Of a DNA stretch of 64,000 nucleotides, positions 2,483 to 62,800 are shown one piece after another. The notes under the pieces were generated by a model that ran no database searches, was not told the origin of the DNA, and was given only the letters and a program-made list of their open reading frames with translations. The translations under genes were made by a program, and so were the position numbers. The stretch is from NCBI GenBank assembly GCA_030765065.1, contig CM060982.1:15001630-15065629 (forward strand). Reading direction: 5' to 3'. This stretch comes from Deroplatys truncata (taxonomy: Eukaryota > Arthropoda > Insecta > Mantodea > Mantidae). The first letter of the stretch is position 1; each line of letters starts with the position of its first letter.

Positions 2483-2488
2483 GATGGG
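2483..2488. repeat. Left target-site duplication GATGGG
   Basis: GATGGG directly precedes the AGTAGG start of the left inverted terminus and is repeated exactly at 11955-11960 directly after the CCTACT end of the right terminus. A 6-bp duplication is the size produced by Polinton/Maverick insertion. Confidence 0.85.
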
Positions 2489-2559
2489 AGTAGGTTATTA
2501 TAGAGAGAGCGAGGCCACTTTTTCGGGCATATATGGGGAAGGATAGGGAAAACGAGGCT

Positions 2560-3935
2560 AGATGGGGCGGTTCAAGAAGGAAAATGGGTTTATATGGTAG
2601 AGATAGGGAATACGACGAACGATATTATGCTAGACAGGGTTGAAGGAGGAAAATACGTTTATATGGAAGAGATAGTAGAAAGGTGTTAGGCTAGACAGAG
2701 GCTGAGGAATAGAGTATGGTTTATATGAAACGTATAGGAAAACGAGGAGAGCTATTAGGCTAGAGAGTTGAAGGGTAGAGTATGTCCTTTATATGAGAGA
2801 GGTAGGAAACAAGAGGAGAGGTGTTAGGCTAGACAGAGTTAAAGGGTAGAGTATGTCTTTTATATGAGAGAGGTAGAGAACAGGAAGGGGGATGTTAAGC
2901 TAGTCAGAGGTTGAGGAGTAGAGTATGTTTATATGAGAGATATAGGAAAACAAGGAGAGGTGTTAGGCTAGACAGAGTTGAAGGGTAAATTATGTCTTTT
3001 ATATGAGAGAGGTAGGGAACAGGAGGAGAGGTGTTAGGCTAGACAGAGTTGAAGGGTAAGGTTGTCTTTTATATGAGAGAGGTAGGGAACAGGGGTAGGG
3101 ATGTTAGGCTAGACAGAGGTTGAGAAGTAGAGTATGCGTTTATAAGGAGAGACGAGAAAACGGAGAGATCCTATGCTAGGATAGACAGGTGTTAAAGGTA
3201 GAATGTGTTTTATATAGGTTAGATAGGAACCCAGGGAGAGATACTCAGCTAGACAGGGGCAGGAGGGGAATGCGCTTTATGAGAGGTAAGGGATACGGGG
3301 AGAGATGCTAGACTAGACAGAGGTGTAGAGTAGGGTATGCGTTTATATGTATGAGGGATATAGGAACAGCAGGAGAGGTATTAGGCTAGACAGAGTTGAA
3401 GGGTAGAGTATGTTTTATATGAGAGAGGTACGGAATACGAGGAGAAGTGCTAGGCTAGCCAGAGGTCGAGGAGTATTGTATGCGTTTATAGGGAAAAGAT
3501 AGGGAAAACGAAGGAAGCTGTTAGACTAGACAGGACTTGAAGGGTAGAATAAACCTTTTATATGGGAGATATAGCAAACCGAGGAGAGGTATTAGGCTAG
3601 GAAGGTTTGAGTATGTGTTTATAAGGAGAGACGAGAAAACGGAGACAGATCCTATGCTAGGATAGACAGGTGTTAAAGGTAGAATGCGTTTATATAGGTT
3701 AGATAGGAAACCAAGGAGAGATACTCAGCTAGACTGAGGACAGGAGGAGAATGCGCTTATGAGAGGTAGGGGATACGGAGAGAGATGCTAGACTAGACAG
3801 TGGTTGAGAGTAGAGTATGCGTTTATATGTATGAGAGGTATAGGAACAGGAGGAGAGGTGTTAGGCTAGACAGATACTGAAGGAGTAGCAATATGGGATT
3901 ATATACAGGAGAGATAGGGAATAGGAGGGGAGGTG
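2560..3935. repeat. TIR array 1, left arm: ~63-76-bp units
   Basis: Around 18-20 degenerate units share the core TTATATGAGAGAGGTAGGGA, followed by a purine-rich stretch and TTAGGCTAGACAGAGGTTGA. Spacing between successive GGCTAGACAG cores is about 63-76 bp. The whole tract is strongly purine-rich on this strand. Subtypes alternate, for example units carrying ACGAGAAAACGGAGA at 3160 and 3640, which suggests a higher-order pattern of roughly 480 bp. The array is mirrored at 10540-11900. Confidence 0.8.
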
Positions 3936-3939
3936 CTAG

Positions 3940-4035
3940 ACTTTGAAAGCGACTTTAGACGAGAACTTTCTGGAAAGCTGTTTGTGTCAATGCTAGGACA
4001 TAAATTCTAGACAGCTGTAGCACGTAACCCACTCA
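3940..4035. repeat. Unique spacer between TIR arrays 1 and 2
   Basis: A roughly 100-bp single-copy segment containing GAAAGCGACTTTAGACGAGA and the palindrome-like TTCTAGACAGCTGTAG. It is conserved almost base for base at 10440-10540 in the opposite arm. As the only non-repetitive block inside the arms it may be functional, but nothing in the sequence shows a role. Confidence 0.6.
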
Positions 4036-4195
4036 CGTAAAAGGGTGACCCACACAGGGAAAAGGTGACCCAGTCAGGGAAAAAGGTGTACCACTCAGAA
4101 AAAAATGTGACCAACAAAGGGAAAAAGGTGACCAACAAAGAGAAAAGGTGACCCAGGAAAGGGAAAAAGGTGACCCACTAACGTAAAAACGTGAC
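4036..4195. repeat. TIR array 2, left arm: ~20-23-bp units
   Basis: Seven or so short units of the type AAAGGGTGACCCAC followed by A/T/C-variable bases and GGGAAA. The half palindrome GGGTGACCC appears in several units. It is mirrored at 10263-10450. Open frames across it, such as the Pro/Phe-rich one on the right arm, are artefacts of the repeat. Confidence 0.85.
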
Positions 4196-4834
4196 TAATT
4201 CAGGTAGCATCACAGGGTAGGACAGATTCCGAGAAGCGGATATAGCATAGTTCCGTATGGTTTCAAAGGTAATTTAGATAGTATCGTAGGTATTTAGGAT
4301 AATTCAAGCGTCATAGGTGTTTAGAGTCACTCGGCTAGTATCACAGGAGGCTAGATTCCAGGGCCAGGGCGAATCATAGCTGTGCATGATTTCACAGATA
4401 ATTCAGCTAGTATCATAGGTATTTAGGCTAATTCAGTTAGTATCACAGGAGGATAGATTCCAGGGTTGGGAGTAGCATAGTTTCGTATTTCACGGTAATT
4501 CAGAGAGTATCGTAGGTATTTAGGATAATTCAAGTATCATAGGTGTTTAGAGTCACTCATCTAGTATCACAGGAGGCTAGGTTCTAGGGGCAGCACGTAT
4601 TATCGTTGTATATGATTTCACAGGCAATTCAGCTAGTATCTTGGGCATTTAAGCTAATTCAGCTAGTATCACAGGAGGCTAGATTCCAGAGGCTAACTGC
4701 ATCATAGCTGTGCATGATTTCACAGGTAATTCAGCCAGCATCGTAGGTATTTAGGCTAATTCAGCTAGTATCACAGGAGGATAAATTCTAGAGTCGGTAT
4801 ACTATAGTTTCGTATTTCACAGGTAGTTCAGGTA
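4196..4834. repeat. TIR array 3, left arm: ~103-125-bp units
   Basis: Each unit contains TAGTATCACAGGAGG, then GATTCCAGGG, then either ATCATAGCTGTGCATGATTT or the alternative GCATAGTTTCGTATTTCA, then AATTCAGCTAGTATCATAGG. Two subtypes alternate, giving a higher-order repeat. TATCACAGGAGG cores lie near 4340, 4443, 4565, 4667 and 4770. It is mirrored at 9521-10262. Confidence 0.8.
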
Positions 4835-5125
4835 ATATCGTAAGTATTTGGGGTAATCGACATAGTTTCACAGATATTAGAGTTAATTTTGATCGGCGAT
4901 TTGTATCACTGCTATTTAAGGTAATTTAAGTTGTATCAATGGTATTTGAGTCTTTTTAACACGAAATTCAGATAGTATCGCAAGTGGTAGTGTTAATTTC
5001 GATCAGGAATTCGTATCAGAGCTATTTAAGGTAACTTCTCATGATTAGGGTAGTATCACAGGTATTTAAGTCATTTTAACACATAATATAGATAGTATCG
5101 CAGTTATTCATAGTAATATAGAGTA
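4835..5125. repeat. Diverged array-3-like extension, left side only
   Basis: Beyond the end of the inverted repeat, the left side continues with two or more weak units of about 140 bp sharing CAGATAGTATCGCA, GTTAATTTYGATC and GCTATTTAAGGTAA. The right arm has no counterpart; its match stops at 9521. This could be the decayed inner edge of a once longer arm, or a one-sided array expansion. Confidence 0.55.
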
Positions 5126-5202
5126 ATTAGATTATAAACATTCCTCATCCAACGTTACAACAATTTATATACTTTTTCTAAATTTTTCAAACCTTTTATA
5201 TG

Positions 5203-5379
5203 TTAAACTGTTAGTGTGCGAGGTGGAGAGGGATAAACTGTATATGGTTTACAAACTGAAAAACTTTGCGTCAACATACCTTTATTTTGGTTCATTGTAC
5301 GTGCCTCTCCCCTTTTATCTAGGCTTGAGACTAGCACTAGGATTGCTCCTAATGGTAGGGTTAACACCTCCCCTTTCAT
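5203..5379 (-). CDS. Small hydrophobic ORF downstream of PolB (58 codons), uncertain
   Basis: An ATG-initiated frame of 58 codons lies 113 bp downstream of the PolB stop, in the gap before the left arm. It has a hydrophobic segment at about residues 5-20 (Leu/Val/Ile/Gly-rich) followed by a basic DKRGEAR stretch, so it could be a small membrane or signal-anchored peptide. The opposite strand is also open with hydrophobic codons, so a chance frame is quite possible. I do not recognise a family. Confidence 0.2.
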   Translation of the reverse strand: MKGEVLTLPLGAILVLVSSLDKRGEARTMNQNKGMLTQSFSVCKPYTVYPSPPRTLTV

Positions 5380-5491
5380 CTTCTTCTTTCTTCATCTGGC
5401 GTCTGCTAGTTGCATACACAGCACACGAATAATCTTCATTTTTTAAGATTGTAGACTCACGAGAAAATCTTCATCTTTGACTTGCATTATC

Positions 5492-6205
5492 CTAAGCACT
5501 GTTTGTAATACTGTAATGTCCATACGCATAGGTAGTTATTCCATCTTCAGCAATAACTCTTTTATCATCAAAGGGATTCAATGTAATTTTATTCACTTGC
5601 ACTGTGGTAACAGTGTGCTTTCGTGATAGGATTAGATTCATGGGCGTTCTGATGATTTCACAGGTTTTAAGACAGTCTGTATAGCTGTGAAACGTAATGT
5701 ACTGCTTAATAGCGCTACGTTTTATACCTTTTATCTTTTTTATCATCGAGCCTTGAATATCTAAGGCATACATCTAAGGTCGTAGTCCAACAAATCGTAG
5801 GGTGATTTTGCCATTAGCCTCATCTTTAAATTTTCCTAGCACCTTCTTGTTTAGAGCTGAATAACATATGTGGCTTGCAGGGTAATCAACTGTATCCAGA
5901 TGCTCGAGAAAAAGTAGCTTGTCCTGGTACACATCTTCAGTTTTTACACGATGAATTAATGAATCAGTGTCCATGTACATAAGCTTTAGGTTTTCAGCTC
6001 CGTAATATGGTAACAACACGTCGTAATGATAGTTATACATTAATGTCTTGGAGATGTCTAACACACTCATGCCAATGTATATAAGCTTGTTGAATACAAT
6101 CTGACGAGAGGCCATATGTACAGCAGCTAGATTAGCGGCATATATCGTCCTATCGATAAACGTAGCCTTGGCGATTAACTTTTCCAGAGTCTTCTCATTT
6201 GTCAC
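5492..6205 (-). pseudogene. PolB segments 5-6: motif C and C-terminus
   Basis: Two open segments in the same frame as segment 4. The first (143 codons) has the conserved KLIYIGMSVLDISK and motif C YMDTDS (D79 and D81 of the segment), the metal-binding pair of the palm domain. A TAG at 5774-5776 separates it from the final 93 codons, which end at 5492 with YGHYSI, a normal-looking C-terminus. Confidence 0.8.
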
Positions 6206-6208
6206 CAG

Positions 6209-8128
6209 TCATATATACATACGGTTACGCAGGTCCTCCATAGTTTTTCCAAACATGGCGTTGTTAAAGAGCTTGTAGAGATCCTTCTCGAAGTCATTTG
6301 CTGCCTGTTGTCGTAGCCTGTTGTTAAATTCCACATAAGGTTTCAACCACCGAGACTGTTGGAATTGTAGCACACAATGGATTTTTGTTAGTCGTAGTCC
6401 ATGGCTAAGAGCTTGCTTCAAAGCCATGTAATGCACTACATACTTCTTTCGAGGTCCAAGGTGGGGTATCAGTTTCTTTGTAGCTGATTCCTGCGGTTTC
6501 ATACACGCAGGCAGGAAAGGTAGATCGTTGTGTAGGTCGTGAAGTTCTACAGGATACTCGATATCGACTTCTAATATGCACCCATGAGGATCATCTTCTT
6601 GTAGTCTTTCTAAGTTGATTTCTTCAGGTGACACCCACTGAAATCCACCAAAAGGGAGGGCGTGACACATTGCACACCCATATTGATTATTAGCGTCCTC
6701 GTATGTGATAAATTGGGTTGGTCTCGATGGATCAAACTTCTCCATATAAGTGTTATTAGCCTCTGCATACCGATGAGAAACTTGACATAAACCTCCTCTT
6801 ATATCAGATTCCACCATGAGTAGTTGATTATAATCTTGTAACAGCTCCAACTTAATTCCACTATACACCAACATGGCGTCCCATGTAATACCTGGAGTGG
6901 TAAAATAATGGGCCGGATCAACTGTGTGTGTTTTGAGGGTTTGCTCTCTGAATGTCTCAAAGACATCGGCTAGAAGAAGTACATCCGAAGTTAAGTAGAG
7001 ATCGCTGTACTCGCCCAGGTTTCTCACCTTAAACAGCTCCCATACATTTATAGCATGATCGTAGTCAGTATCAGTAATTTCTTCTTCATTTAATCTATTG
7101 TAGAAGTCCTTAGGAGGCAAGCAGGTCTCGTTCAGGATACCCCATGACGTGACAAAATCATATGGAAATACACCCTTACGTTTCATCAACTTTAATTTGT
7201 CTTCTCCAAAGTACGTTAGTGTTTCAGGATATGAGGTTAGATTTTTTACCAACTTATCCAACCTTGTACTGAGGAATTGGAAGCTATCCACAAACCTAAG
7301 CTTTATATCACCTACATGCTTAGTGAATGAGATATAGCTTTCTTCAGAGTTAGGAATTACCTCTAACCGTTCACTTGTACAACCCAGCTCCTTAACAATG
7401 AAATGCGAGTCATATCCGCTAAGGTTATGCATGAAGACAGGAATATATTTAGGTGTTTTGCAGGCTAAATTGCATTTATTATGTAGACTTCCACGATATT
7501 CACCGCTGATGTGATCATGGTCGCGTACTTTGTAGTTCTCTTCTGTAAAGGGTTTTCCACACAAGTAGCATACCGTAGAAGACTCAAAATCCTTTTGCTG
7601 TTCATCCGTAAGATTCAGAGGCTTGACAGATTTGTATATGTTATCAATCATTGTTGCAAGAGATGTCAAATATAGCATAAACTTCTGAGCAGCATCAACA
7701 CCACGGTATACATAGGGTTGCTTAGGAAGATCAGTTTCGAGATGTTCAACACAGGATGATGGCTTCACGTAAACACAGAAGCTCATTGGCGTGTGGTATT
7801 GGTAAGGGGTTGTATTGGAATTTTCAGTTTCGGGTATACACGTATGGCATGGAGTGAGAATACTCTCAAAATCAGCATAGATGACATAAGGTACTTTCAG
7901 CATCCTTTCAACATTTTTAAACTGTACAATTGATTTCTCCTTGGTAGGTATAACTACCCTTGCGATACCATGTTGAACACAGATGGCTGCATGTGCTTGT
8001 AGTTTTTCCAGTCCACTTCGTCCGCTCCGAAAATCAAAATGTGTAAAGCAGCGCTTACAGGTATAAACACGTCCATTACGTTTAGTTTTCTGACGTCGAA
8101 CGAGCTTCTCAAAATTCTTTATGTACAC
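6209..8128 (-). pseudogene. PolB segment 4: exonuclease plus polymerase motifs A and B
   Basis: The longest intact stretch, 639 codons. Positions in this segment: zinc-ribbon-like CKRC at 24-27, ExoI D86/E88, HNH-like cluster C187, C190, H204, H206, H216 and C219, ExoII N235 and Y239-D240, ExoIII Y378-D382, motif A D478 with Y483, motif B K619 to K628. The region between motifs A and B includes the insertion expected for the terminal-protein region of protein-primed polymerases. It ends at the TGA at 6209-6211, which cuts motif C from the rest. Confidence 0.85.
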
Positions 8129-8790
8129 ATAGTGATGTTTTCCACAATATCACTCAATAGTAGCAGGTCACGATGTTCAGGTAGTTTAGTGCTAGCAACC
8201 TTTATTGGATACACTTCATGCTTCTCATCCAGCCCGAAAACGCTATTAGACATCTTGTTAAGCTTCTCAAATTTAGGTATTTGAGAAAGTGGAATAGGAT
8301 AGGAAAAGCAGCTGAGGTCGTGCTTATCTTGAAGTTGCTTGTATTTGCTGACGCGTTCAGGCTTGGTGCTGACGAATTTGGCCAGTATAGAATACATGAA
8401 ACATTTCTCATCACTAAAGTTCTGAATGTTTATACACGCTTCTTTAGCTCCGACAATGACTAGTGGTATGTAGCTACTTCCTCGTAACGGATTGTACTTG
8501 TTGATACGAAGTCGAACTCCTTCCACAGCAAGCAAAGCCCAGTTGCTACCCTTAAGCTAAGACTCCTCCATTTCAGTCACCAATTTCTTGAATTTTGCTT
8601 CCAGTGTTGAGCCGAGATCTGTTTCTAGGAAAACAGGATGATTCCGTGTTTTAAATGTTTTGTCACAGGTTTCTCCAATACGGTTAACAAATCGACACCC
8701 AGCCAGCAGATTAATTTTAACACTCTTGTGAATATCAAGCTCTTTATGCACAGCCTGGATTGTGCGTTGTTTTGCTTCATTCAGATACAT
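8119..8790 (-). pseudogene. PolB segments 2-3: pre-exonuclease region
   Basis: Two open segments in the same frame (8557-8790 and 8119-8535) are separated by one TAG at 8557-8559. They contain the hallmark NKYNPLRGSSYIPL stretch found before the exonuclease domain of this polymerase group. The second segment overlaps the next by 10 bp in a different frame, which marks the single frameshift of the gene. Confidence 0.7.
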
Positions 8791-8805
8791 ATTCAGGTCC
8801 TTAGG

Positions 8806-9138
8806 TCATTCACATCGTATAAAATACGATTTCAATCGTCCTTCGAATGAAGTTTCATGTTCTTTCATATCACAGCCCTCCATTGTTGATAATAACTGAT
8901 GTTTAGTAGGCTCCAATCTGCTTTTCTTCTGAGGACTGCTTGTTTCACATATATCTTCGTGTCGCTGACCTTTATAACCGTCATTGAAGGTCAAGCTACA
9001 ATGTTTACATTTGAAGAGCTTCTTGCAGCTCATCTCGTATCTTCTCTTGTGATAACCTCGGAGGAACTTCTTCCCACATTTTCCGCAAGCGTATCCAGTA
9101 GCGCTTGGGATAATATCATTATACGCTGAGTTATTCAT
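8806..9138 (-). pseudogene. PolB segment 1: N-terminal C2H2 zinc fingers
   Basis: A 110-codon open segment starting at the presumed ATG. Residues about 18-64 carry Cys-x2-Cys ... His/Cys patterns (ACGKCGKKF, then FKCKHCSLTF ... H ... C), consistent with two zinc fingers for DNA binding. The following Ser/Lys-rich linker ends with a conserved-looking FEGRLKSYFI stretch before the first TGA. N-terminal fingers are seen in several arthropod Polinton-type polymerases; this is from family knowledge, not from a search. Confidence 0.7.
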
Positions 9139-9253
9139 CTTTATTCTTGATGTAATAACGTATTAATCCTTCTTCAAGGGAAATGTAGACCTCTTCACCT
9201 TGATAGCACTTTAGAAAGCTGATTATTCTTGGAGAGAACACGATGTTAACACC
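9131..9253 (-). CDS. Possible 3' remnant of an upstream gene overlapping the PolB start
   Basis: A 40-codon open stretch without its own ATG ends in a TAA that overlaps the first codons of PolB in another frame (GATGAATAA). The peptide has normal-looking composition (FLKCYQGEEVYISLEEGL). Overlapping stop/start arrangements are typical of compact viral and Polinton genomes, so this may be the tail of a deleted neighbour. It may equally be a chance frame. Confidence 0.25.
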   Translation of the reverse strand, partial: GVNIVFSPRIISFLKCYQGEEVYISLEEGLIRYYIKNKDE

Positions 9254-9520
9254 TCAAGACGAATTAGCAGAATGAAGTCCAATGTCCTAGATCACCCTAA
9301 TTGTAGAGGGAGCACGAACCTTTTAGATCAATCATAAACTCCCTCCATAACTAGTTGTATATGATCGCTCTAAGCGCATTAACCTCCGTCATATAACCTC
9401 ACGCCGAGAGACAGGATGTTCATGACGTCACACCCAAAGACAGGATGTATAGCAGTATCAAACACGTTTAAACTCGTTTCGTAACTAGCTATATATGCTG
9501 TCACACCAACAAGAGAAGTA
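9254..9520 (-). promoter_or_regulatory. Upstream region of PolB with TATA-like motif
   Basis: Single-copy sequence between the PolB start and the right arm. TATATA lies at 9491-9496 (GCATATATAGCT on the minus strand), about 350 bp before the PolB ATG. Two near-copies of ACAGGATGT...TGACGTCA-like sequence lie at about 9411-9450; TGACGTCA is a CRE-like palindrome. A promoter role is inferred only from position. Confidence 0.3.
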
Positions 9521-11954
9521 TACCTGAACTACCTGTGAAATACGAAACTATGTTATACCGACTCTAGAATTTAGCCTCCTGTGATACTAGCTGAATTAGC
9601 CTAAATACCTACGATGCTGGCTGAATTACCTGTGAAATCATGCACAGCTATGATGCAGTTAGCCTCTGGAATCTAGCCTCCTGTGATACTAGCTGAATTA
9701 GCTTAAATGCCCACGATACTAGCTGAATTGCCTGTGAAATCATATACAACGATGATACGTGCTGCCTCTAGAATCTAGCCTCCTGTGATACTAGATGAGT
9801 GACTCTAAACACCTATGATACTTGAATTATCCTAAATACTACGATACTCTCTGAATTACCTGTGAAATACGAAACTATGCTACTCCCAACCCTGGAATCT
9901 ATCCTCCTGTGATACTAACTGAATTAGCCTAAATACCTATGATAGTAGCTGAATTAGCTGTGAAATCATGCACAGCTATGTTTCGCCCTGGCCCTGGAAT
10001 CTATTCTTCTGTGATACTAACTGAATTAGCCTAAATACCTATGATACTAGCTGAATTATCTGTGAAATCATGCACAGCTATGTTTCGCCCTGCGCCTGGA
10101 ATCTAGCCTCCTGTGATACTAGCCGAGTGACTCTAAACACCTATGACGCTTGAATTATCCTAAATACCTACGATACTATCTAAATTACCTGTGAAATGAT
10201 ACGGAACTATGCTATATCCGCTTCTCGGAATCTGTCCTACCCTGTGATGCTACCTGAATTACTCACCTTTTTACGTTAGTGGGTCACCTTTTTCCCTTTC
10301 CTGGGTCACCTTTTCCCTTTGTTGGTCACCTTTTTCCGTTTGTTGGTCACCTTTTCCCTTTGTTGGTCACCTTTTTCCCTGAGTGGGATACCTTTTTCCC
10401 TGACTGGGTCACCTTTTCCCTGTGTGGGTCACCTTTTTACGTGAGTGGGTTACGTGCTACAGCTGTCTAGAATTTATGTCCTAGCATTGACACAAACAGC
10501 TTTCCAAAAAAGTTCTCGTCTAAAGTCGCTTTCAAATTCTAGCACCTTCCCTCCTATTCTCTATCTCTCCTGTATATAAACCCATATTGCTACTCCTTCA
10601 GTATCTGTCTAGCCTAACACCTCTCCTCCTTTTCCTATACCTCTCATATATATAAACGCATACTCTACTCTCAACCACTGTCTAGTCTAACATCTCTCCC
10701 CGTATCCCCTACATCTCATAAGCGCATTCTCCTCCTGTCCTCAGTCTAGCTGAGTATCTCTCCTTGGTTTCCTATCTAACCTATATAAACGCATTCTACC
10801 TTTAACACCTGTCTATCCTAGCATAGGATCTGTCTCCGTTTTCTCGTCTCTCCTTATAAACACATTCTCAAACCTTCCTAGCCTTATACCTCTCCTCGGT
10901 TTGCTATATCTCCCATATAAAAGGTTTATTCTACCCTTCAAGTCCTGTCTAGTCTAACAGCTCCCTTCGTTTTCCCTATCTTTTCCCTATAAACGCATAC
11001 TATACTGCTCGACCTCTGGCTAGCCTTGCACTTCTCCTCGTATTCCCTACCTCTCTCATATAAAACATGCTCTACTCTTCAACTCTGTCTAGCCTAATAC
11101 CTCTTCTCCTGTTCCTATATCCCTCATACATATAAACTCTCCCCGTATCCGTTACCTCTCATAAAGCGCATTCCCCTCCTGTCCCTGTCTAGCTGAGTAT
11201 CTCTCCCTGGGTTCCTATCTAACCTATATAAAACACATTCTACCTTTAACACCTGTCTATCCTAGCATAGGATATCTCCGTTTTCTCGTCTCTCCTTATA
11301 AACGCATACTCTACTTCTCAACCTCTGTCTAGCCTAACAACCCTACCCCTGTTCCCTACCTCTCTCATATAAAAGACAAGCTCTACCCTTCAACTCTGTC
11401 TAGCCTAACACTTCTCCTCCTGTTCCCTACCTCTCTCATATAAAAGACATACTTTACCCTTCAACTCTGCCTAGTCTAACACCTCTCCTCGTTTTCCTAT
11501 ATCTCTCATATAAACATACGCTACTCCTCAACCTCTGACTAGCCTAACATCCCTCTTCCTGTTCCTTACCTCTCTCATATAAAAGACATACTCTACCCTT
11601 CAACTCTGTCTAGCCTAACACCTCTCCTCCTGTTCCCTACTTCTCTCATATAAAGGACATACTCTACCCTTCAACACTGCCTAGCCTAATACCTCTCCTC
11701 GTTTTCCTATATCTTTCATATAAACCATACTTTATTCCTCAGCCTCTGTCTAGCCTAACACCTCTCTACTATCTCTTCCATATAAACGTATTTCCCTCCT
11801 TCAACCCTGTCTAGCATAGTATTGGTCGTCGTATTCCCTATCTCTACCATATAAACCCATTTTCCTCCTTGAACCGCTCCATCTAGCCTCGTTTTCCCTA
11901 TCCTTTCCCATATATGCCCAAAAAGTGGCCTCGCTCTCTCTATAATAACCTACT
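9521..11954. repeat. Right terminal inverted repeat (2.43 kb)
   Basis: Reverse complement of 2489-4834 with the same array order mirrored: array 3 at 9521-10262, array 2 at 10263-10450, unique spacer at about 10440-10540, array 1 at 10540-11900 and the unique end to 11954. It ends ...CTATAATAACCTACT and is followed by GATGGG. Small differences in unit number explain the extra length. Confidence 0.88.
10263..10450. repeat. TIR array 2, right arm
   Basis: About eight units of GGGTCACCTTTTTCCCT, complementary to array 2 of the left arm. It gives a repetitive Pro/Phe/Gly open frame at 10279-10470 that should not be taken for a gene. Confidence 0.85.
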
Positions 11955-11960
11955 GATGGG
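11955..11960. repeat. Right target-site duplication GATGGG
   Basis: Exact copy of 2483-2488, directly outside the right terminus. Confidence 0.85.
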
Positions 11961-21289: not shown

Positions 21290-22412
21290 TTGATGGCGGA
21301 AGTATAGCAGGATAGTATCAACATTCATCCCAATACATAGAGGGTTGGTTCTTGCTACCCTACAGAAATTCTACAGACCAGATGTGGCAGGATAGTGGGT
21401 AGTAATCAGGCAATAAAGGTAGCCATTATCAGCCATCCAAAGACATAGAGGGTTGGTTCTTGCTACCCTACAGAAATTCTACAGGCCAGATGTGGCAGGA
21501 TAGTGGGTAGTAATCAGGCATTAAAGGTAGCCATTATCAGCCATCCAAAGACATAGAGGGTTGGTTCTTGCTACCCTACAGAAATTCTACAGGCCAGATG
21601 TGGCAGGATAGTGGGTAGTAATCAGGCAATAAAGGTAGCCATTATCAGCCATCCAAAGACATAGAGGGTTGGTTCTTGCTACCCTACAGAAATTCTACAG
21701 GCCAGATGTGGCAGGATAGTGGGTAGTAATCAGGCAATAAAGGTAGCCATTATCAGCCATCCAAAGACATAGAGGGTTAGTTCTTGCTACCCTACAGAAA
21801 TTCTACAGGCCAGATGTGGCAGGATAGTGGGTAGTAATCAGGCAATAAAGGTAGCCTTTATCAGCCATCCAAAGGACATAGAGGATTGGTTCTTGCTACC
21901 CTACAGAAATTCTACAGGCCAGATGTGGCAGGATAGTGGGTAGTAATCAGGCAGTAAAGGTAGCCATTATCAGCCATCCAAAGACATAGAGGGTTGGTTC
22001 TTGCTACCCTACAGAAATTCTACAGGCCAGATGTGGCAGGATAGTGGGTAGTAATCAGGCAGTAAAGGTAGCCATTATCAGCCATCCAAAGACATAGAGG
22101 GTTGGTTCTTGCTACCCTACAGAAATTCTACAGGCCAGATGTGGCAGGATAGTGGGTAGTAATCAGGCAGTAAAGGTAGCCATTATCAGCCATCCAAAGA
22201 CATAGAGGGTTGGTTCTTGCTACCCTACAGAAATTCTACAGGCCAGATGTGGCAGGATAGTGGGTAGTAATCAGGCAGTAAAGGTAGCCATTATCAGCCA
22301 TCCAAAGACATAGAGGGTTGGTTCTTGCTACCCTACAGTAATTCTACAGGCCAGATGTGGCAGGATAGTGGGTAGTAATCAGGCAGTAAAGGTAGCCATT
22401 ATCAGCCATCCC
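21290..22412. repeat. 108-bp satellite array, ~10 units
   Basis: Tandem units with period 108 bp; the AGAGGGTTGG cores start at 21339, 21447, 21555, 21663, 21771, 21880, 21988, 22096, 22204 and 22312. Only one unit differs in length (109 bp). Units are almost identical, differing mainly at AATAAAGG versus AGTAAAGG. Stops occur in all frames that I checked, so the array is not coding. The near-identity indicates recent amplification. Confidence 0.97.
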
Positions 22413-22477
22413 AATACAGGTCGTCTCCCAGTAGCAGGAATGTCGAGGAAGAACACCATTCTGCCAAGTTAATTTGG

Positions 22478-23208
22478 ATTGTTAGTATTGTAGACTCTGT
22501 GAATTTTCGCAGACACCCGCTTCGATGTTTCAGGCCTACATGTCGGTATTGTAGACTGTGAATTTTCGCAGACACCCGCTTCGATGTTTCAGGCCTACAT
22601 GTCAGTATTGTAGACTCTGTGAATTTTCACAGACACCCGCTTCGATGTTTCAGGCCTACATGTCAGTATTGTAGACTCTGTGAATTTTCGCAGACACCCG
22701 CTTCGATGTTTCAGGCCTACATGTCAGTTTTGTAGACTCTGTGAATTTTCGCAGACACCCGCTTCGATGTTTCAGGCCTACATGTCAGTATTGTAGACTC
22801 TGTGAATTTTCGCAGACACCCACTTCGATGTTTCAGGCCTACATGTCAGTATTGTAGACTGTGAATTTTCGCAGACACCCACTTCGATGTTTCAGGCCTA
22901 CTTGTCAGTATTGTAGACTCCGTGAATTTTCGCAGACACCCGCTTCGATGTTTCAGGTCTACATGTCAGTATTGTAGACTCCGTGAATTTTCGCAGACAC
23001 CCGCTTCGATGTTTCAGGTCTACATGTCAGTATTGTAGACTGTGAATTTTCGCGGACACCCGCTTCGATGTTTCAGGCCTACATGTCAGTATTGTAGACT
23101 CTGTGAATTTTCGCAGACACCCGCTTCGATGTTTCAGGCCTACATGTCAGTATTGTAGACTGAATTTTCGCAGACACCCACTTCAATGTTTCAAACCTAC
23201 ATGTCAGC
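22478..23208. repeat. 57-61-bp satellite array, ~12 units
   Basis: Tandem units containing TGTAGACTCTGTGAATTTTC, then GCAGACACCCGCTTCGATGT, then TTCAGGCCTACATGTCAGTA. Units alternate between 61 and 59 bp through loss of a CT/CC dinucleotide, and the last is shorter. CTGTGAA-TTCGCAG inside each unit is an imperfect palindrome. The monomer is unrelated to the 108-bp unit that lies only about 65 bp away. Confidence 0.97.
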
Positions 23209-29591: not shown

Positions 29592-31243
29592 ATGGCTCGT
29601 ATGTTTTCAAAGTCAAGTGGTAAGGTGTTACATAGTCAAAGTAGGGAAATAATTGCAAATGTCATCGACTTCATGAAGCAAGAAGCAGAGATGAAGGAAG
29701 AAATTATATCCGAGTTCCACAAAAGCCTTAAGAGAGTGAAAGAAAGAGTAGTCAAAGCAACTGGTGTTTCACCGAGTTCCGTTTCCGGAGTTCTCAAAGA
29801 TAAGAGAAAAAAAACATATGGATGAAAGAGTACCATTTGACACACCTGGGAAGAAACATAAGGTCCCTAAACGTATTACAGAAATAGACGATTTCGAATG
29901 CGTCATTCGGCGCACGATTCACAATTCCTGTGTGGAAGCAAAAACTGTGCTAACAATAAGCAGATTGCTCATCCAGCTGAAAGACAGCAGAAACTTTCAA
30001 GGTGGTGCTACAAATCACAGAAAAATTATTAAAGATTTAGGGTTCAAATAGAAGAAACCGAAATCAAATAGAAGAGTTCTAACAGAAAAACAAAATAAAT
30101 AAATAAAATAAAAAAATAATAATAAAATAAAAAAATAAAAATAAAAAGTAAATGTTGCCATGATAGCTTAGTCGGTTAGAGCAACGGCACGGAAAGCCTA
30201 CGATCCGTGGTTCAAATCCCGGCTATGGCATTGAATTTTTCAGTCTGATTCTACCTTTCCAAAAGACTATAATTTTATATGTACTTATATCAGTGTGTAC
30301 TTATATCAGCATCAATTTTCAAGGTGGTGCTACAAATTTCAGAAAAATACTATAATGTATGAAGATGAGTCATACATACACAGCAGTCATACAGCATCTA
30401 AAAGTTGGAGTGACGATAGCGAATTAGGTTTGCAGGCACCTGTTGCCAAAGGGCAAATACTTATTATCGTTCGTGCTGTTGGAAAGATCGGCTTTGTTCC
30501 AAATGCCCTTCTTTTACAAGTCGCAACAAACAACAGAAGATTTTCATCAAGAAATGAATATAGAAAATTACATGAAGTGAATCAACGCCATGTTGATACC
30601 TAATATGCCTGCTGGGTCTGTTCTGGTCATCGACAATGCTTCACAATGCGTCAACACTCAAATTCACAAACCACCTACCTCAACTTCCTTGAAAGAAGAA
30701 ATGAGTGCTTTGTCACTTAGACATAATAAAGCTTTAGATGAAATCATGAGTAAAACAAAGCTATATAACTTAATTAAAGCCAACAAACAGCTTCAGAAGT
30801 CATACATACTTGACCAGATAGTAATACAACATCGCCATAATGTACTTAGACTGTCATCGTATCGCCCAGATCTAAACCCAATCGAGTTAATCTGGGCTGA
30901 TATCAAAAAATGGGTGGCATGCAGAAATATCACTTTTAAATTAAAATATGTGGAGCAGTTGTAACGCCAGCAATTTGCTGAAATTGGAAGGCCAGAATGG
31001 GAAAATCTATGGCGACATGCTGAATAAATTAAGAATCATTATTCCGAAAAATACGGAATTGCAGAAAACCAAATTGAAATAATTCTCATGCAGGATAATG
31101 GTGCAGAAAGTAGTGACAGCAGTGATGACGGCAATAATGTGAGTGATTCCGCAGAAGAGGAAGGGTTGTTAGATGTGGAAGAATTGGAGGCAATGATTGA
31201 CAGCGTTTTCTATATTAAGCGCTTTTTACAGCGTGGATTTTAA
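29592..31243 (+). pseudogene. Tc1/mariner-superfamily transposase with DD83E spacing, decayed
   Basis: The N-terminal part (29592-29825 and 29764-30051) has helix-turn-helix-like sequence (VKATGVSPSSVSGVLKD). The catalytic domain has the first Asp in MYEDESYIHS (30364-30366), the second in VLVIDNASQ (30632-30634) and the Glu in YRPDLNPIELIWADIKKW (30884-30886). Exactly 83 codons lie between the second Asp and the Glu, far more than the usual 34-39, close to the DD82E ('Sailor') group as I remember it. An acidic Ser/Asp/Glu-rich tail runs to the stop at about 31243. Breaks: a frameshift near 29800, a SINE insertion at about 30060-30310, a frameshift near 30595 and a stop at 30962-30964. Terminal inverted repeats were not found. 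Confidence 0.78.
30150..30262 (+). repeat. SINE family 2, copy 2, inside the transposase relic
   Basis: tRNA-like head GATAGCTTAGTCGGTTAGAG (A box) and GTGGTTCAAATCCCGGCTAT (B box), then TTGAATTTTTCAGTCTGATT and CTACCTTTCC. It resembles a tRNA but lacks a pairing acceptor stem and has a SINE tail. An A-rich AAATAAAATAAA tract precedes it. Short copies of the transposase sequence (TTTCAAGGTGGTGCTACAAA) flank the insertion at about 29996 and 30316. Confidence 0.65.
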
Positions 31244-47929: not shown

Positions 47930-49500
47930 CTCTGCTCCCAGACGTCAGATTAGTGCGTCAACAGTAACGTTGTCGGTACCCTTGATGTGAGCCGGAATAA
48001 ATTTGAAAGAGGAAATATAAACTACACATCTAGCGAGTCTTCCCGTTTTCCTGGAGCAGCCAGAGTAGAGATAAAACCTCGTCGTACTCCAACATAAATG
48101 ACCAATACTGCAAGCTCATAAAAAACCATATCTTTCTCTGTGCAAACCTATAGATTGCAGGAAGCATAATAACCGGAACTGTGAACCTAGAGAAGGTCTT
48201 GCAATAGCATTGCAGCCATATAATGTCCTGAAGCATCAGTCGGCATAAGAAACTTCCTCAAACATTGGGAGAGTTAGACACAAGTAAATAAGATATTCGA
48301 ACTTTTATGTCGGTTAGGAACCTTTTTAAGTTTAACCTCTTTGCGACATAGCTCGTTAAAAGGTTTAGCTCATTCATAATAGTGCTGAATAAAGTTTGCG
48401 AGGGCAGTTAAACTACGCACGCCGCAGTGAGGTGGGATTATCAGTGACCCCGGTCGGTGAGACCAAATGTCTTAATATGCCAATCTGTGACGTATACAAT
48501 TAACCATAGACGGCTTGACCGCAAACCCGGAACGAGTCAATCAAGTAAACACCTCGCGAACACCTATGTGCGTTTGAATATCCCGAATATACTGCCAGAA
48601 CATCCAGGTATTGGTAAAGGAATTTGAAATTAATAAAAAGTTATCCAATGACCAAAACACAACTTGGGCACCAGAGGCAATGTCAAAAATTGCCCGATAA
48701 AAATAATAGACTCTCCATGGCTTCGCAAAGGTTTCGAAGTGTTTTTTTTCTTTGCCAACGGGATTTGGTAGTAGGCGTTATTTATATCCAGTGAGATTAA
48801 TACCGGAGCATCCGCAAAGCGATGGGCAGCCGTATGCAAGTGTGGCAAATGAGTTGGCTCAGTGCAAATCCACTTATTCAAATAGCCATAATCGAATACC
48901 GGATGGAAGTCATTCGGCTCCTTGGGAACAACTAAAATAATGAAGGCTTCCTGTATGTCGCTTCCAATGGTGTGATGAACCTCATCCAGCATATCTTTCA
49001 CCTTACGCTTCAACATCATCATCTTAGGAGGTGTAAGCGGATATGGGAAGAGCTTAACCGGCGTATCCGTGTGTTAAATTTCGTCAGCGATCAAGATCAT
49101 GAGACCGAAGCTATTTGAGAACAGTTGGGTAAAGTCCTCGTCCAACAAACGGAGCTGTACAGCTTGCTCAGGAGAAAAGACGGCCAATGAATCTTCCACT
49201 TAGTCCATGGGCGGCACCTTACACGATAGAAGCCGAGCGCAGAAGGAAGCACGGCCTGCTGAATAGACCACAGCTGCCGAGGAACAAATGCGAACTTCAT
49301 CTAATTAGTACTTCTGACCGTAACTCCGAGTGGACCATAAAGTCCGTTCCCAGAATAATCACGTCAGCCAAATAGCGTAGAAGTAAGCAAGTGAGATTGA
49401 ATAAATGTTGCGGAAAAGGAAGAGAATAAGTAGATTTCGAAGAAACCCTTAATCTTTGGGCATTAATCGCTACACAATCCAACTGACAAATCAAATTCTC
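47930..49500 (-). pseudogene. Ty3/gypsy-type pol (protease, RT, RNase H), decayed
   Basis: Read from high to low coordinates. 49300-49500 has a protease-like C-terminal patch (YLADVIILGTDFM). 48630-49022 is the reverse transcriptase fingers and palm: ILVVPKEPNDFHPVFDYGYL, NKWICTEPTHLPHLHTA and VLISLDINNAYYQIPL, which supplies the first catalytic Asp. Around 48560-48600 the catalytic YxDD appears altered (QYIRDI). RNase H pieces follow at about 48200-48270 (SYADASGHYMAAMLLQ) and 47940-48010 (a degenerate AHIKGTDNVTVDAL). Stops and frameshifts are numerous. An integrase was not seen downstream. Confidence 0.75.
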
Positions 49501-61564: not shown

Positions 61565-61855
61565 TGAGTTTTACTTATGGACGCTTTTTAACTTCTGTGG
61601 TACTTAGCGTCCCATTATACGTTGGGCGTGAAAGACCGGAAATAATGCCCATAGCCCCTTTATAAGGCCTAAGGTTCCTTTACGTGCCGTATATCTACCA
61701 CACGAGACCACCGTTTTACCTCCTTTCCGAAGAAAGGCATGTTAAGGATTTTACTCCCGAAAAAAATACATCGCCCTCCGCCGGGTTTGAACCCCCGACC
61801 TCGGGAACTAGAGGAAGGCATGGTAACCATTTCACCACGGAGGACGATGAGGGTG
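61565..61855 (-). repeat. SINE family 1, copy 7 (inside integrase)
   Basis: Sense strand is minus: TCCGTGGTGAAATGGTTACC, GGTCGGGGGTTCAAACCCGG, CGGAGGGCGATGTATTTTTT, TACGGCACGTAAAGGAACCT and tail AAAACTCAATTT. Full length, about 290 bp. It interrupts the C-terminal end of the integrase at 61900-62076. Confidence 0.85.
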
Positions 61856-61869
61856 CGAACCGAGTGTGA

Positions 61870-62800
61870 CAAAATCCCCAATGTGGAAAGGCGCCGGATG
61901 ACGATATTCATTATGATGGTGAGAACGGCGCTGAAGGTTGCGACGTAAAACGTCCAAACCCGCCTTCCGTCGTTGAGAAAGCGCCACAGATGAACCGAAG
62001 TATTTAAGGCAAAGTGAAACTCTGGGACAAAAGTATCCATCAAACTATGACTATCAGAATGAAAAGCGACCAACACGCGCTTAACAGTGCGAATTACGCG
62101 TTCGACTAAATGTTATGGGTAATATGGTGCACACAAATTGAATGCCCCTCTCAAAGAATAACGTGCGAAAAATCGAGCACGAAAATATTAAGCATTGTCG
62201 GAAACTACAGTTCCGGGTGTGCCAACAGATGCAATAATGGGCGACAGCACGGACGCTGACGTAAAATCTGTAGCGGCACGAAGCTTCACGAGTCAGTGAA
62301 ATTTAGCAAAAGCGCCCATGACGACGCACAGATAGCTATAGTCTCGCAAAGTACGCGGTAAAGGGCCGTTATAGTCAATGAACAAACGTTCCTTAGGTTA
62401 ACGCGAAATTTTAGAAGCTAATAAATCCAACCAGGTATTTTGAGGAGGTTTAGCGGGTAGAAAAATATCACCAGACATAACCAACTGTATGATGTCACGG
62501 TGTGTCACCATACAAAATATTCTCGAATTTTGCTTTTAGCCCTTCATATGCCTAAATGGACTCCAAATAGAGCGGCATAAAAGTAACCTAATACGACCGG
62601 TATCAATTGTTTTGGAAACAAGATCCTTGTCAATTGAGACTAAGAGATACGCGTACAGCACTCCCTCCTGAACCATACACCCGATGAAATTAGACCGTCA
62701 TTAGATTGCCGCCAAAACGGAGCTGCGGATGCTGAGAAATGCTGGTAAATATTGCTGGAAAATCACGTGTAAAGGTGATCACCGTAGCAACTGGGCATCA
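61870..62800 (-). pseudogene. Ty3/gypsy integrase, decayed
   Basis: Order on the minus strand: degenerate zinc-binding and linker sequence at 62500-62640, then the catalytic core with Asp in RLFIDYNGPLPRTLRDYSYL (about 62350-62410), the second Asp in SVGTPGTVVSDNA (about 62185-62225), and the Glu in HLVERVIRTVKRVLVAF (about 62060-62110). The C-terminal side reads VAFHSDSHSLMDTF and FHFALNTSVH before the SINE. Stops occur between blocks. It would integrate the cDNA if intact. Confidence 0.72.

What the first reader, a model, noticed from the sequence alone, without database searches (positions are those of the whole stretch)
2489..11954. Polymerase-only Polinton with inverted termini making up half of the element
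The element has AG...CT ends, a 6-bp GATGGG duplication and PolB, all as in Polinton/Maverick, but in 9.47 kb it carries only PolB between inverted repeats of about 2.35 and 2.43 kb. Known Polintons are typically 15-20 kb with TIRs of some hundred bp and several more genes. This may be a distinct non-autonomous lineage: replication in cis, integration and any packaging borrowed.
Basis: partly seen in the sequence, partly recalled or inferred. Interest (0 to 1): 0.88.

Follow-up and report, generated by a model that had tools for sequence, protein, structure and literature searches.

The report
Palindromic polymerase-only Polinton family member
The 9.5-kb element is a dead, one-off deletion product of a multicopy family of jumping elements in its host genome whose intact form looks like a 15.9-kb near-perfect mirror image carrying two copies of one DNA-copying gene, which raises the question of how such DNA is copied and inserted.

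Summary
In detail: 2489-11954 has AGTAGG...CCTACT ends, a GATGGG duplication, inverted arms of about 2.35 and 2.43 kb and one gene, a phi29-like polymerase (PolB), broken by four stops and one frameshift. The host genome (4.29 Gb) holds many relatives; no integrase was found in the loci read. But TIR-PolB-TIR is not the family's form: none of 40 other listed places spans this copy's inner junction. The intact form is a palindrome. Of 67 top-scoring PolB hits, 52 fall in 26 minus/plus pairs; in 17 pairs both frames exceed 1,200 aa. One copy followed to both ends is 15,860 bp, inverted throughout except a ~70-nt centre that recurs in other copies. Arms within an element differ by 0.26% on average, between elements by 5.4%. 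PolB is constrained (dN/dS 0.19). Integrase-bearing Polintons lie in the same genome. I read the family as a Polinton-derived, PolB-only, palindromic transposon, replicated by its own polymerase, integrated in trans, arms re-copied each cycle. Architecture, concerted arms and 6-bp duplications are shown; replication and integration steps are inferred. The paper searches run showed no palindromic Polinton.

The parts
2483..2488 (.). Left copy of the 6-bp target site duplication GATGGG
2489..4850 (+). Left inverted arm (inner edge approximate): 71-bp tandem repeats (about 2489-3960, 8% C and 35% G on the + strand), 21-bp repeats (about 4021-4200), 102/226-bp repeats (about 4201-4834)
5492..9138 (-). 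PolB pseudogene, ends read off: N-terminal zinc-finger-like part (by eye), N-terminal region, Endonuclease_7-like segment, family-B polymerase; four in-frame stops, one frameshift
   Evidence: homologues; fold of homologue P0003
9139..9523 (.). Remnant of the inner spacer upstream of PolB, homologous to the inner part of palindromic copies
9524..9525 (.). Inferred deletion junction (position +/- a few bases): inner spacer of the left arm joined to the inner part of the right arm; not found in the 40 other places listed
9525..11954 (-). Right inverted arm, inverted copy of the left
11955..11960 (.). Right copy of the target site duplication GATGGG

Best explanation
SHOWN: this copy is an old, broken relative of a multicopy, Polinton-like transposon family whose intact form is a palindrome (15,860 bp in the C11 copy): terminal tandem-repeat arm, PolB, spacer, a ~70-nt non-palindromic centre, then the mirror image. 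The two PolB genes point away from the centre; no other gene was recognised. Insertions carry 6-bp duplications and AGTAGGT-type ends. The palindrome is inherited (the same centre recurs in several elements), yet the two arms of one element are more alike than arms of different elements. The layout of this copy fits an internal deletion of that palindrome. INFERRED: PolB, a phi29-like polymerase of the protein-primed kind, copies a linear extrachromosomal form from its identical ends. The displaced strand is self-complementary and folds into a ~7.9-kb hairpin closed by the central loop; copying or repairing that hairpin makes one arm the template of the other, so arms are renewed each cycle. 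An integrase supplied in trans, most simply by the integrase-bearing Polintons of the same genome, inserts the product with a 6-bp duplication. Afterwards arms drift apart and deletions accumulate, as here.
Against: No extrachromosomal form, priming or hairpin is observed. The N-terminal parts were not matched to solved folds (one search tests residues 285-1081 only). The termini of the host Polinton were not found, so shared integrase recognition is untested. L047 and L053 have similar one-sided centre deletions on opposite sides of the loop, which the model does not explain by itself. Of nine pairs with a short frame, five have it in one arm only and one has unequal frames in both; only three have near-equal ones. 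In one search one frameshift was seen where 4.7 small indels were expected (P of 1 or fewer 0.05). One element of 10 is not monophyletic. L039 has a different centre. Copies sampled are the best-scoring ones, not random, and most paired copies were read at the centre only.
Confidence: 0.68

Rival explanations
1. Arms are kept alike by gene conversion between the arms after insertion, as in sex-chromosome palindromes (recalled), not during replication of the element.
For: Arms of the same element are most alike; long inverted arms are good conversion substrates (established knowledge).
Against: Some copies have diverged arms: 3.5% here, 2.0% in C2, so conversion has not kept them alike. C11 outer arms are 99.98% identical up to the TSD, which fits a state set at insertion.
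Confidence: 0.22
2. One reading: TIR-PolB-TIR monomers of 9-10 kb are a lineage of their own and the palindromes are secondary dimers.
For: Single-PolB copies exist: the window's, C15, C16a, C9b (PolB hits in one orientation only), and two of three unpaired hits read (L050, L051), whose own PolB frames are 1,225 aa.
Against: The window's junction was not found in 40 other listed places. Top-scoring copies are mostly paired. The palindromes share one centre, so they are one inherited form, and the window copy keeps part of the palindromes' inner spacer up to its junction. Junctions of the other single-PolB copies were not compared base by base.
Confidence: 0.07
3. The palindromes are assembly artefacts (reads folded back on themselves, or arms made alike by polishing).
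For: Near-identical arms are hard to assemble; no reads were available here.
Against: Mirror symmetry ends at the element ends and TSD in C11, and flanks of C11 and C2 do not match; other arms differ by up to several percent; many loci; one-sided centre deletions.
Confidence: 0.03
4. Integration does not use a Polinton integrase; another host integrase or the Endonuclease_7-like segment of PolB does it.
For: No integrase match in the loci read; PolB carries an Endonuclease_7-like segment, weaker (below cut-off) in a virus that has its own integrase.
Against: 6-bp duplications and AG...CT ends are those reported for Polintons (recalled); 129 Polinton-type integrase matches scored in the host.
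Confidence: 0.12

Closest known systems
Polintons/Mavericks (polintoviruses)
   Same: Family-B PolB of the phi29 kind, 6-bp TSD, AG...CT ends, inverted termini; PolB related (39% identity) to that of virus contig L001, which has an integrase and a packaging-type ATPase. Elements lacking capsid, protease and ATPase genes are on record: 9 of 72 (PMC4028283, section 4 read).
   Different: No integrase found; nearly the whole element is inverted repeat; two PolB copies; arms in concerted evolution.
Foldback elements such as Tetris of Drosophila virilis
   Same: Apparently nonautonomous, TIRs with internal tandem repeats, diverse rearranged forms (PMC4079207, abstract read).
   Different: Ours encodes a polymerase, has 6-bp TSD, and the mirror image includes the gene.
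Bidnaviruses and linear plasmids with protein-primed PolB
   Same: PolB of Polinton type with inverted termini (PMC4061559 passages; PMC11071308 parts of sections).
   Different: Those are encapsidated or episomal; ours is integrated with a TSD and palindromic.

Membership tests
Polinton/Maverick | Family-B, protein-primed-type DNA polymerase | tested here: met
Polinton/Maverick | N-terminal terminal-protein and vOTU domains in PolB | tested here: inconclusive
   N-terminal region present and homologous to relatives; fold comparison covered residues 285-1081 only
Polinton/Maverick | Retrovirus-like integrase gene in the element | tested here: not met
   No hit of 120 integrases in L014-L052 at E 1e-3 nor of the host Polinton integrase in 48 loci and the window at E 0.01; control: 118 of 120 hit L054. 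Most paired copies were read at the centre only
Polinton/Maverick | 6-bp TSD and AG...CT ends | tested here: met
   Identical TSD in 10 of 12 elements with both ends found, one with 5 of 6 bases, one not matching; near-uniform AGTAGGT ends
Polinton/Maverick | Packaging ATPase, protease, capsid genes (frequent, not universal) | tested here: inconclusive
   tblastn of distant virus proteins (L006-L033) and of the host Polinton ATPase piece: no hit; capsid query distant, no control; protease not searched
Foldback elements | Long TIRs built of tandem repeats | tested here: met
Foldback elements | Mobilised by a cut-and-paste transposase of the MULE or P superfamily (recalled) | not tested
   No such gene was looked for; TSD is 6 bp

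The most novel reading that the evidence does not exclude
A new replication strategy among animal DNA transposons: the genome is a self-complementary strand. Each displaced strand is a complete hairpin genome, closed by a conserved loop and opened by protein-primed synthesis from its free end, so the element needs one gene, one kind of end and an integrase borrowed from Polintons, and rewrites one arm from the other at every cycle.
Probability: 0.3. Interest if true: 0.92.

Novelty: new variant of a known kind. Interest (0 to 1): 0.78.

Why it matters
Long perfect palindromes are usually unstable (established knowledge), yet here a 15.9-kb one looks like the inherited form of a multicopy transposon. 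It offers a natural test of how protein-primed linear DNA is copied in animal cells, of whether PolB-only elements live off Polintons, and of how satellite-like elements arise from virus-like ones. It also warns that a copy read in isolation can mislead about a family.

Tried and rejected
Viral collection: the window's PolB alone found no relative; alignments found two contigs, found again. Inverted repeats between the two ends of the L001 contig (first 600 and last 1,300 bases): best match 14 bases, so it gives no baseline. Phage collection: only a short match to an endonuclease VII in two records of one Vibrio phage. PDB by sequence: weak matches, mostly zinc fingers. Paper searches for nonautonomous, truncated or integrase-less Polintons: none, and two narrower ones also none; for palindromic Polintons or transposons: nothing fitting among the 25 of 46 and 25 of 97 rows listed (listings only). 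Two papers were not held (the 2006 Polinton description and the adintovirus paper); Polinton TIR norms are thus recalled. C16d (20.2 kb): its centre holds what looks by eye like a Penelope-type reverse transcriptase, taken as a nested insertion. Terminus of the host Polinton sought in L055: not identified. Genome-wide searches for the terminus pattern, the centre, the L055 end and Pox_A32 did not complete, so no copy number is given; 7,163, 23,496 and 7,900 are first-look candidates, not copies.

Rows dropped: one search uses BLAST pieces of 150 bp or more; one search keeps inverted matches of 120 bp or more near the main antidiagonal, and tandem repeats blur its figures; one search keeps hits over 1,200 bp and the first per strand, giving 28 arms of 18 elements, 10 with both arms; one search uses one arm of each of 12 elements and columns without gaps. 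Fifteen of 67 PolB hits were unpaired; three of these were read. One 30-kb pair (C16:9152462-9182420) and 14 or so unpaired terminal hits were not read to their other end.
Full report
WHAT IS IN THE WINDOW. Its ends read AGTAGGTTATTATAGAG... and the mirror image, flanked by GATGGG on both sides. The arms align over 2,313 ungapped positions with 81 differences (3.5%) and nine gaps, three of them of 20, 37 and 102 bp (one search gave 95.1% because it ran past the inner edges). The arms are tandem-repeat arrays: 71-bp units in the outer 1.47 kb, 21-bp units, then 102/226-bp units. The outer block has 8% C and 35% G on one strand. The core has one recognisable gene, PolB, on the minus strand. Pfam finds DNA_pol_B_2 and Endonuclease_7. 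Homologues place the gene from about 9138 to 5492; it is interrupted by four in-frame stops and one frameshift. A decay simulation that takes the arm divergence as the clock expects 2.5 stops and 4.7 small indels; 4 stops (P of 4 or more 0.26) and 1 frameshift (P of 1 or fewer 0.05) were seen. That roughly fits a PolB that was open at about the time of insertion.

THE HOST GENOME. The window is C8:15001630-15065629 of a 4.29-Gb assembly, unnamed. A 412-bp terminal query gave 51 matches (40 of 7,163 first-look candidates scored). I read 12 elements with both ends, this one included, 5.8 to 20.2 kb long. All 12 contain PolB or pieces of it, and 8 of 12 have it in both orientations. Inverted coverage runs from 0.48 to 1.00 of the element; this one has 0.51. 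A query across this copy's inner junction gave 44 matches: the copy itself in full, 40 other places that stop at the junction, and three inside this copy's own arm (40 of 2,496 candidates scored). So this layout looks like a one-off.

THE INTACT FORM. A PolB query scored 68 places of 23,496 first-look candidates. Leaving out the window, 67 remain: 50 have open frames of 1,200 aa or more, and 52 form 26 minus/plus pairs, 12 of them spaced 7.79-7.84 kb. In 17 pairs both frames are open. Of the 15 unpaired hits I read three: one has a mirror partner, two show no second PolB in the 6 kb read. I fetched 12 centres between paired genes. Seven are palindromic from end to end at 98.97-99.8%, and five have one-sided centre deletions. 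In six of these seven the arms meet at a similar stretch of about 70 nt that is not inverted; L039 has a different centre (by eye). A search with that stretch hit 10 of 14 centre loci, the query's own included, and none in the window; it folds into a stem-loop with RNA parameters, without a shuffled control. The copy on C11 was followed to both ends: 15,860 bp, TSD ggtctc, outer 4,850 bp of the arms 99.98% identical, mirror symmetry ending at the TSD, flanks unmatched. Its arms and centre were compared piece by piece. TSDs are identical in 10 of the 12 elements in which both ends were found; one differs at one base, one does not match. In two further elements (C16d, C3) one or both ends were not found by the pattern.

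ARMS EVOLVE TOGETHER. In 10 elements with both arms available over a shared region, arms differ by 0.26% on average, against 5.4% between elements (368 comparisons). The two arms are each other's nearest sequence in 10 of 10 and sisters in a FastTree tree in 9 of 10. Nine of the 26 pairs have at least one short frame: in five only one arm is short, in one both are short but unequal, in three both are near-equal. The last three are what one expects if a lesion was copied from one arm to the other; I did not check the lesions base by base. If so, a copy with broken PolB was still multiplied, hence help in trans. The 5' part of PolB has dN/dS 0.19 (12 elements, 66 pairs, 339 codons).

INTEGRATION. 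None of 120 Polinton-type integrases matches the element loci L014-L052 at E 1e-3. The host Polinton's integrase, ATPase piece and two other proteins match none of 48 loci and the window; the same integrase set hits the host Polinton in 118 of 120 cases. Most paired copies were read at the centre only; C11 and C3 were read with both arms. In the host, an integrase query scored 129 places of 7,900 candidates at 29-34% identity, often as 320-aa open frames. The one I read, L054, has an integrase (rve above its cut-off), a Pox_A32-like piece and a tail-fibre-like match just under their cut-offs, and a PolB that is 40% identical to ours over 253 residues. So at least one integrase-bearing Polinton with a different PolB lives in the same genome, and the other integrase hits suggest many. 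Whether their ends match those of the palindromes is not known.

MECHANISM. Shown: palindromic inherited form, 6-bp duplications, constrained PolB, arms alike within elements, no integrase found. Inferred: protein-primed copying of a linear form; folding of the displaced self-complementary strand into a hairpin closed by the central loop; arm renewal by copying or repair in that hairpin; insertion by a borrowed Polinton integrase; later decay and deletion. The Endonuclease_7-like segment, in phage T4 a resolvase of branched DNA (recalled), might act on cruciforms; that is speculation, since virus L001 shows the segment too, below its cut-off, and is not known to be palindromic.

COMPARISON. 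Polintons without capsid, protease and ATPase genes are on record (9 of 72; PMC4028283 section 4). Foldback elements with tandem-repeat TIRs are on record (Tetris, abstract). I saw no palindromic, PolB-only Polinton in the listings of searches; most subscription papers are outside that library.

VERDICT. The finding is real and led to something larger than proposed. The copy itself is an ordinary dead deletion product; the family behind it is unusual.

Noticed in passing
L047 and L053 (host C13 and C8): Two palindromes, about 96% alike, have similar one-sided centre deletions (unpaired 564 and 519 bp), but on opposite sides relative to the central loop: recurrent deletion, or flip of the loop.
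   Followed up: partly
L054-L055 (host C7:242113500-242123500): Classical Polinton with integrase, ATPase-like piece and a different PolB; tandem repeats of about 35 bp beyond PolB may be near its terminus.
   Followed up: partly
L014, L015, L018, L029 and other arms: The 21-bp unit of the arms looks expanded to hundreds of bp in other copies, seen as period-7 repeats in translated frames.
   Followed up: no
window 2489-3960 and 10484-11954: Extreme strand asymmetry of the outer arms (8% C, 35% G on the 5' strand of each end), perhaps linked to single-stranded exposure of displaced ends.
   Followed up: no
window 30235-30964, 48630-49073, 61669-62112: Fragments that look by eye like a Tc1-type transposase and gypsy-type reverse transcriptase and integrase.
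   Followed up: no
window 21326-22418 and 22480-23207: Two long tandem arrays, 108-bp units (98% alike) and 61-bp units (94%).
   Followed up: no
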